Shown: positions 22,523-24,567 of the stretch, one piece after another | How the letters are laid out: every line of letters begins with the position of its first letter | Position numbering within the stretch: position 1 is the first letter of the stretch | Assembly: GCA_013416795.1 (NCBI GenBank) | Contig: RQSC01000027.1 | Location: 593,936-657,935, forward strand | DNA: 64,000 bases | Direction: 5' to 3' | From: Prasinococcaceae sp. CCMP 1430 | Taxonomy: Eukaryota; Prasinodermophyta; Palmophyllophyceae; Prasinococcales; Prasinococcaceae | Notes under the pieces: generated by a model | Seen by the model: only the letters and a program-made list of their open reading frames with translations | What the model was told of the DNA's origin: nothing | The model's database searches: none | Translations under genes and position numbers: made by a program

Positions 22523-24567
22523 TTACATGTCCTCCTCCTCCTCGTCGTACTCGCCCTCCTCCTCGGCGGTGGCGTCCTGGTACTGCTGGTACTCGGAGAC
22601 GAGGTCGTTCATGTTGGACTCGGCCTCGGTGAACTCCATCTCGTCCATGCCCTCACCAGTGTACCAGTGGAGGAACGCCTTGCGGCGGAACATGGCGGTG
22701 AACTGCTCGGACACGCGCTTGAACATCTCCTGGATCGAGGTCGAGTTGCCGATGAAGGTGGCCGCCATCTTGAGGCCCTTGGGCGGGATGTCGCACACCG
22801 ACGACTTGACGTTGTTGGGGATCCACTCCACGAAGTACGAGGAGTTCTTGTTCTGCACGTTGAGCATCTGCTCGTCGACCTCCTTGGTCGACATGCGGCC
22901 GCGGAACATGGCCGAGGCGGTGAGGTAGCGGCCGTGGCGGGGGTCGGCGGCGCACATCATGTTCTTGGCGTCCCACATCTGCTGGGTGAGCTCGGGGACG
23001 GTGAGCGCGCGGTACTGCTGCGAGCCACGCGAGGTGAGCGGGGCGAAGCCGACCATGAAGAAGTGGAGGCGGGGGAAGGGGATGAGGTTCACCGCGAGCT
23101 TGCGCAGGTCAGCGTTGAGCTGGCCCGGGAAGCGGAGGCAGCAGGTGACGCCCGACATGGTGGCCGAGATGAGGTGGTTGAGGTCACCGTTCCACCCCCA
23201 CCACTCGAAGTCCCACGCCTTCGTCTACAGCATGTCCCGGAGCAACAGCTCGTGGTACGTGAGCAGCCGCAAGAGGTGCTCGACGTGGACCGACAGGGTG
23301 GCGTTGTAGGGCTCCACCACGGTGTCCGACACCTTGGGCGAGGGGAACACCGAGAAGGTGAGCATCATGCGGTCGGGGTACTCCTCGCGGATCTTGGAGA
23401 TCAGGAGGGTGCCCATGCCGGAGCCGGTGCCGCCGCCCATGGAGTGGCACACCTGGAAGCCCTGGAGGCAGTCGCACGACTCGGACTCCTTGCGCACGAC
23501 GTCGAGCACGGAGTCGATGAGCTCAGCGCCCTCGGTGTAGTGGCCCTTGGCCCAGTTGTTGCCGGCGCCGGTCTGGCCGAACACGAAGTTGTCCGGGCGG
23601 AAGATCTGGCCGTAGGGGCCCGAGCGGACGGAGTCCATGGTGCCGGGCTCGAGGTCCATCAGGATCGCGCGGGGCACGTAGCGGCCTGCGGACGCGCGGT
23701 GGATCGTCGTCAACGGAGCGGGGAGCGCGCGGGGCGGGGAGCGCGCGTGGCGTCAGGTCGATGCCCGCAGCGCGCCAGCTGGGGCGCGGCGGACGAGGCG
23801 GCGGCCACAGGGCGGGCGCCCCCGCGACGCCTATCGCGCGCCGATCTCCGCAAGGAACGAGGGGGAGCGGCGCGGGGACCGGCGCCGGTCTGGCCGAACA
23901 CGAAGTTGTCCGGGCGGAAGATCTGGCCGTAGGGGCCCGAGCGGACGGAGTCCATGGTGCCGGGCTCGAGATCCATCAGGATAGCGCGGGGCACGTAGCG
24001 GCCTGGTCAAACAACACGTCGGTCAGCAGCAAGTACGGGTTGGGATGGGGGCGATGGTGACGTGAGGGCGTGACGCGCCCTCGCGTGCGCGTCCGGCCGC
24101 GGCGATCGCGCTTGCCCGCGCCCGCTGTGTGCGCGCCCGCACGCCTCTCCATGGCTGCAGCGAGGTTTGGGCCAGGCGCGAGCCGCTTTTGGGTGTTTGC
24201 CCGAAAGGTCGTGGCGCAACGCGAGCGCCGCAGCACGCGGCAGCGCTCACGCCGCGCGCAGGCATGCGCGACGCACCGCCGGTCGCCTCGTTGAAGTACA
24301 CGTTGATGCGCTCCAGCTGGAGGTCGGAATCGCCGTGGTAGGTGCCGGTGGGATCGACGCTGCGCGGCAGCACGGGGGGCGGCAGGGGCGGGTCAGCATC
24401 GACGTCGCCCCGCGAACGCACAAAAGCGGAAACGCGCCCCGCGGCGGCCGGGCGCGGCGCTGCGGGCGCGGGGGCACGCACCCATGCTCGTCGCAGATGA
24501 CCTCCCAGAACTTGGCACCGATCTGGTTACCGCACTGGCCGCCCTGGATGTGAACGATCTCACGCAT
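22523..24567 (-). CDS. Beta-tubulin (sequence disrupted)
   Basis: Minus-strand exons 24567-24482, 24359-24277 and 23685-22523 give 443 residues, one short of animal beta-tubulin. Exon 1 begins [17 protein letters not shown], with the MREI autoregulation start. The GTP-binding loop [10 protein letters not shown], the Cys/Arg-rich [13 protein letters not shown] and the acidic [12 protein letters not shown] tail are all present. It polymerises with alpha-tubulin into microtubules. There are two oddities. First, 23190-23284 is reversed without complementing, which replaces 32 conserved residues and puts a TAG at 23227-23225; reading frame is otherwise kept. Second, the first 127 bp of exon 3, with an acceptor, occur twice (24005-23879 and 23688-23562), and only the second copy runs into the rest of the gene. 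So the gene as written does not encode a full tubulin, although everything else about it looks functional. Confidence 0.95.
23190..23284. other. 95-base stretch with reversed polarity (not complemented)
   Basis: Within beta-tubulin the plus-strand letters 23190-23284, read backwards as a plain string, spell the coding strand for the tubulin segment beginning [14 protein letters not shown] and ending RTLKLTTPT, with the last codon completed by the complement of base 23189 to give Phe. Read normally on the minus strand the stretch is nonsense with one stop. Flanking codons on both sides are ordinary tubulin in the same frame. Confidence 0.95.
23562..23688. repeat. 127-bp duplicated exon start, copy joined to the gene
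   Basis: Matches 23879-24005 in 125 of 127 bases, same orientation. It encodes the tubulin segment from [10 protein letters not shown] to FGQTGAG and has its own acceptor, CGTCCGCAG. The coding frame continues from this copy. Confidence 0.9.
23879..24005. repeat. 127-bp duplicated exon start, orphan copy
   Basis: Upstream copy of the tubulin exon-3 start, with acceptor TTTGACCAG. After GQTGAG it runs into unrelated GC-rich sequence with no obvious donor, so it is probably skipped or is an assembly remnant. Confidence 0.9.

What the first reader, a model, noticed from the sequence alone, without database searches (positions are those of the whole stretch)
23190..23284. Ninety-five bases inside beta-tubulin are reversed without being complemented
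Seen directly: on both sides the minus strand encodes normal beta-tubulin in one frame. Between them the normal reading gives nonsense plus a TAG, yet the plus-strand letters taken in backwards order spell 31 full codons of the expected tubulin segment ([14 protein letters not shown] to RTLKLTTPT) plus two bases completed to Phe by the next base. Length and frame are preserved exactly. An ordinary DNA inversion gives the reverse complement; no known recombination, repair or replication process yields a reversed, uncomplemented strand. The likeliest causes are a software or editing error, or a deliberate insertion into the record. If it were truly in the genome it would be without precedent.
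Basis: partly seen in the sequence, partly recalled or inferred. Interest (0 to 1): 0.93.

Follow-up and report, generated by a model that had tools for sequence, protein, structure and literature searches.

The report
Strand-swapped assembly patch in beta-tubulin
Ninety-five letters in one copy of an alga's beta-tubulin gene have each been swapped for their partner base without being turned round; the pattern is exact, but the poor assembly at that spot says it is almost certainly a data-handling error, not a feature of the living genome.

Summary
Window 23190-23284 (G000:C73:617125-617219) is string-reversed relative to the coding strand. Better put, both strands carry the expected bases complemented in place, in unchanged order. 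A paralogous exon in the same genome (C72) is 100% identical on both sides and holds the string-reverse at 95/95, so the edges are unambiguous. An ordinary inversion fits only 35/95. Querying the genome with the whole reversed exon returned this one place only (E 4.8e-42).

The likeliest cause is a record artefact. The exon is a collapsed paralog region with broken assembly in all three copies. In C72 a single-N join removes the end of exon 2 and intron 2. The C112 copy starts exactly where an N-run ends and breaks off 3 bases inside one edge of the 95-base segment. The C73 copy carries a partial second exon start. No second case appeared in 273 kb screened by codon model (about half of such segments would be caught).

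The pattern does have published look-alikes: "swinger DNA", A<->T + C<->G, for example in the Kamimuria wangi mitogenome record. I find nothing supporting a biological origin. A deliberate edit of the record cannot be separated from a software error here.

The parts
23190..23284 (-). 95-base segment: in-place complement of beta-tubulin exon 3 positions 405-499 (equal to the coding strand's letters written backwards on the + strand)
23285..23688 (-). beta-tubulin exon 3, 5' part (exon positions 1-404), 1 difference from C72; GTPase domain PF00091
22523..23189 (-). beta-tubulin exon 3, 3' part to the stop codon (exon positions 500-1166), identical to C72; PF03953
23879..24005 (-). partial second copy of the start of exon 3 (127 bases, 98-99% identical), preceded by an AG acceptor; probable chimeric join or tandem remnant
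24279..24361 (-). exon 2 region ([28 protein letters not shown]); its end and intron 2 are missing from C72 at a single N
24482..24567 (-). exon 1 with start codon ([29 protein letters not shown])

Best explanation
It is an artefact of the sequence record. During assembly, gap closing or consensus calling of a beta-tubulin exon shared almost identically by at least three loci, a stretch of 95 bases was written into scaffold C73 with a strand-handling mistake: complemented but not reversed (equally, a coding-strand fill that was reversed but not complemented). The living cell most likely has an ordinary beta-tubulin exon there. Shown: the exact in-place complement, the intact identical paralog, the misassembly of the same exon in three scaffolds, and the coincidence of an edge with another copy's break. 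Inferred: that the patch entered at a gap-closing or consensus step, and that a single read or contig end was the source.
For: C72 holds the string-reverse at 95/95 with identical flanks. The exon's copies are badly assembled: in C72 a single N abuts the first base of exon 3 and the end of exon 2 plus intron 2 are gone; in C112 an N-run ends at that very base and the copy breaks off at exon position 496 into unrelated sequence, 3 bases from the edge at 499; C73 itself carries a partial extra exon start. The scaffold has an unmerged contig overlap elsewhere: 92 bases duplicated across a single N at C73:575681. One genome-wide hit to the reversed exon. No DNA-level process inserts a block with strands swapped but direction kept, because strand polarity would clash at both joints (established chemistry).
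Against: No read data, assembly log or second assembly was available, and the organism was not identified, so the step that went wrong is not shown. A systematic bug would be expected to leave more cases; none was seen in the 273 kb screened, though the screen finds only about half of them and only inside coding sequence.
Confidence: 0.8

Rival explanations
1. The segment was altered deliberately in the record (a hand edit, a watermark or a planted test).
For: A single, clean, codon-starting change in a highly recognisable gene; nothing else like it found in 273 kb or for this exon genome-wide.
Against: The genome store used by the search tools carries the same letters as the window, so an edit would have to sit in that store too; one edge falls within 3 bases of a break in the C112 copy, which an arbitrary edit would not be expected to do.
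Confidence: 0.15
2. Colour-space decoding error: in two-base (SOLiD) encoding a complement in place leaves all inner colours unchanged, so two colour errors at the edges would give exactly this.
For: Explains exact length, order and sharp edges with only two errors (established property of the encoding).
Against: The same mechanism should also make A<->C/G<->T and A<->G/C<->T islands, which would be conspicuous in a 67% GC genome; a codon scan with high discrimination (1.5-1.9 nats per codon) gave one weak hit in 273 kb. No sign that such data were used.
Confidence: 0.03
3. Real DNA: 'swinger' replication with A<->T + C<->G exchange, or another unknown process, changed 95 bp in the living genome.
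For: The same pattern with sharp edges has been reported from deposited sequences, always by this one exchange rule for DNA (PMC4942731).
Against: No known polymerase or repair reaction does it. Zero further differences from C72 in the 95 bases and none in 668 + 369 flanking bases. It sits in a misassembled collapsed exon. That only complement-in-place is reported for DNA is what a bookkeeping error predicts.
Confidence: 0.01
4. Ordinary inversion or gene conversion with heavy divergence.
For: None found.
Against: The reverse complement of the expected segment matches at 35 of 95 positions, the in-place complement at 95 of 95.
Confidence: 0.001

Closest known systems
'Swinger DNA', rule A<->T + C<->G (Seligmann), e.g. 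16S rDNA in the Kamimuria wangi mitogenome record (described in PMC4942731 and cited in PMC7027195)
   Same: A segment with sharp edges inside otherwise normal sequence, every base exchanged by the A<->T + C<->G rule, order kept.
   Different: Reported DNA cases are described as especially ribosomal RNA genes; here it is 95 bases of a nuclear protein-coding exon with an exact intact paralog in the same genome and visible misassembly of that exon.
Strand-handling errors in assembly, gap closing or consensus (complement without reverse, or reverse without complement)
   Same: Gives exactly this string, preserving length and frame.
   Different: The program and step responsible were not identified, and no second case was found in the part screened.
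DNA inversion
   Same: Local change of orientation with preserved length.
   Different: Produces the reverse complement, which matches at only 35 of 95 positions.

Membership tests
Assembly/record artefact | The expected sequence is known and intact elsewhere in the same data | tested here: met
   C72 copy has the string-reverse at 95/95 with identical flanks
Assembly/record artefact | Signs of misassembly at the same element | tested here: met
   single-N join in C72, N-run plus truncation in C112, partial exon duplication in C73
Assembly/record artefact | Raw reads contradict the record | not testable with these tools
   no reads available
Assembly/record artefact | Same error recurs elsewhere in the assembly | tested here: inconclusive
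   none convincing in 273 kb, sensitivity about 54% in coding sequence; only long reversed match among these stretches
'Swinger DNA' (A<->T + C<->G) | Every base of a stretch exchanged by one bijective rule, with sharp edges | tested here: met
   95/95 complements, 0/95 identities
'Swinger DNA' (A<->T + C<->G) | Present in the physical molecule | not testable with these tools
   needs reads, PCR or cDNA
DNA inversion | Segment equals the reverse complement of the ancestral sequence | tested here: not met
   35/95

The most novel reading that the evidence does not exclude
The 95 bases stand in the living genome as written, which would mean that a block of duplex DNA can be copied with its bases exchanged for their complements while keeping direction.
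Probability: 0.01. Interest if true: 0.97.

Novelty: not a real feature. Interest (0 to 1): 0.15.

Why it matters
If real it would break a basic rule of how DNA is copied and joined. As an artefact it still has a use: it is a clean specimen, with an exact paralog as control, of the pattern that has been published as 'swinger DNA', and it suggests that those records should be checked against reads and against paralog or contig breaks. It also means that the C73 beta-tubulin model, and automatic pseudogene calls at this locus, should not be trusted.

Tried and rejected
Ordinary inversion: rejected (35/95). Chance match: rejected (E 4.8e-42). Strand-symmetric k-mer scan for reversed stretches: too weak, the known segment did not stand out. 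Codon-model scan: in the window alone, with strict flank thresholds, the tubulin segment was the only hit; in 273 kb about 20 candidates at looser thresholds were read by eye and looked like introns or antisense frames of other genes, none restored a recognisable protein. Colour-space hypothesis: islands of the two other exchange types were not found, one weak hit. Single-N joins inspected for reversed or complemented overlaps: none; one direct 92-base duplication. A k-mer-size reading of the number 92 (the C112 break lies 92 bases into the segment; a 92-base duplication at C73:575681) was considered but not relied on, since a third exact 92-base match in the list arises from a chance SNP position. 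Organism identification: the rRNA family search failed twice and a rRNA pattern search found nothing; chlorophyll-binding proteins show that it is photosynthetic; Prasinoderma coloniale and Mantoniella tinhauana, thought of as candidates, differ in reported assembly statistics.

Full report
What is there. The minus strand of window 22523-23688 encodes the last large exon (exon 3) of a beta-tubulin gene; the two Pfam tubulin domains are found on either side of the reported segment. Between them, window 23190-23284 reads as nonsense with a TAG on the coding strand, but taking the plus-strand letters backwards gives [31 protein letters not shown] plus two bases of the next Phe codon. The stated coordinates, length and frame are right.

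An internal control. The window lies at G000:C73:593936-657935 in a 24.5 Mb, 145-contig assembly. A paralogous exon on C72 is identical over 668 bases on one side and 369 bases (404 with one difference) on the other, and between them contains the exact string-reverse of the window segment, 95 of 95. Compared column by column, none of the 95 bases agree and all 95 are complements. The edges are therefore exact. The plainest description is that each base pair has been flipped in place: complemented, not reversed. A normal inversion would give the reverse complement, which agrees at only 35 of 95 positions.

How unusual it is in this genome. The whole exon from C72 written backwards, used as a DNA query, finds one place in the genome, these 95 bases, at 100% and E 4.8e-42. 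A codon-usage scan for stretches that become coding when complemented in place, flanked on both sides by coding sequence in the same frame, returned only this segment in the window at strict thresholds. Over 273 kb of C73, C72 and C112, at looser thresholds, it gave about 20 candidates that, read by eye, look like introns or antisense frames. Complementing random 95-base stretches in known genes showed that the scan finds about 54% of them (81 of 150). A direct comparison of all fetched stretches for reversed 18-mers found this match and otherwise only isolated words. So no second case is known, but most of the genome was not screened.

State of the assembly at this exon. Three scaffolds carry the exon and all three are damaged. 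In C72 a single N stands directly before the first base of exon 3 (CAGGCCGC...), with the end of exon 2 and intron 2 missing. In C112 a long N-run ends at exactly the same first base, and the tubulin sequence stops at exon position 496 and continues as unrelated sequence. The swapped segment covers exon positions 405-499, so its edge lies 3 bases from the C112 break. In C73 a 127-base extra copy of the start of exon 3 precedes the full exon. Elsewhere on C73, at 575681, a single N separates two copies of the same 92 bases, an unmerged contig overlap. N-runs in this store may also be withheld stretches, so the C112 run by itself is not proof of an assembly gap; the single-N joins and the truncation do not depend on that.

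Most likely mechanism. A near-identical exon shared by several loci is just where short-read assemblies break and where gap closers and consensus callers put in patches. A patch taken from the other strand must be both reversed and complemented; doing only one of the two gives exactly what is seen, with length and frame kept. The step and program are inferred, not shown. I put this at 0.8, a deliberate edit of the record at 0.15, and a colour-space decoding error at 0.03. The last predicts two other kinds of exchange island; the scan for them gave only one weak hit.

Could it be real? A block of duplex DNA can be joined in two orientations only, as it is or as its reverse complement. Swapping strands while keeping direction would join 5' to 5' and 3' to 3' ends, and no polymerase is known that exchanges every base for its complement. 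The segment also shows no further difference from C72. I put a real origin at about 0.01.

Precedent. Deposited sequences with this very pattern have been described as 'swinger DNA'. [quoted passage not shown] PMC7027195 cites the same case. That the only rule found in DNA is the one produced by forgetting to reverse a complemented string is my inference in favour of an artefact in those records too; I have not re-examined them.

Verdict. Observation confirmed, interpretation as a record error supported, biological interest low. The decisive test is read mapping or PCR at C73, which could not be done here.

Noticed in passing
window 23879-24005 against 23562-23688: The first 127 bases of beta-tubulin exon 3 occur twice, each after its own AG acceptor and different upstream sequence; either a chimera of two paralogs or a tandem remnant.
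   Followed up: partly
L008:1816 (C72:54315): A single N replaces the end of exon 2 and intron 2 of the C72 beta-tubulin gene.
   Followed up: yes
L009:2333-2828 (C112:94832-95327): A 496-base beta-tubulin exon fragment lies between an N-run and unrelated sequence; it ends at CACCCCCAC, 3 bases before the edge of the swapped segment.
   Followed up: yes
G000:C73:575681 (locus L011): A single N flanked by two direct copies of the same 92 bases, probably an unmerged contig overlap.
   Followed up: partly
C72 and C73 beta-tubulin genes: Exon 3 is 99.9-100% identical outside the swapped segment while the sequence after the stop codon is unrelated, which suggests gene conversion or collapse of paralogs in assembly.
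   Followed up: no
window 27621-28823, - strand: An alpha-kinase family protein (PF02816, E 1.3e-35) in a photosynthetic eukaryote.
   Followed up: no
window 15702-15852, + strand: Match to H/ACA snoRNA family snoR134 just over its gathering score (42 against 40 bits).
   Followed up: no
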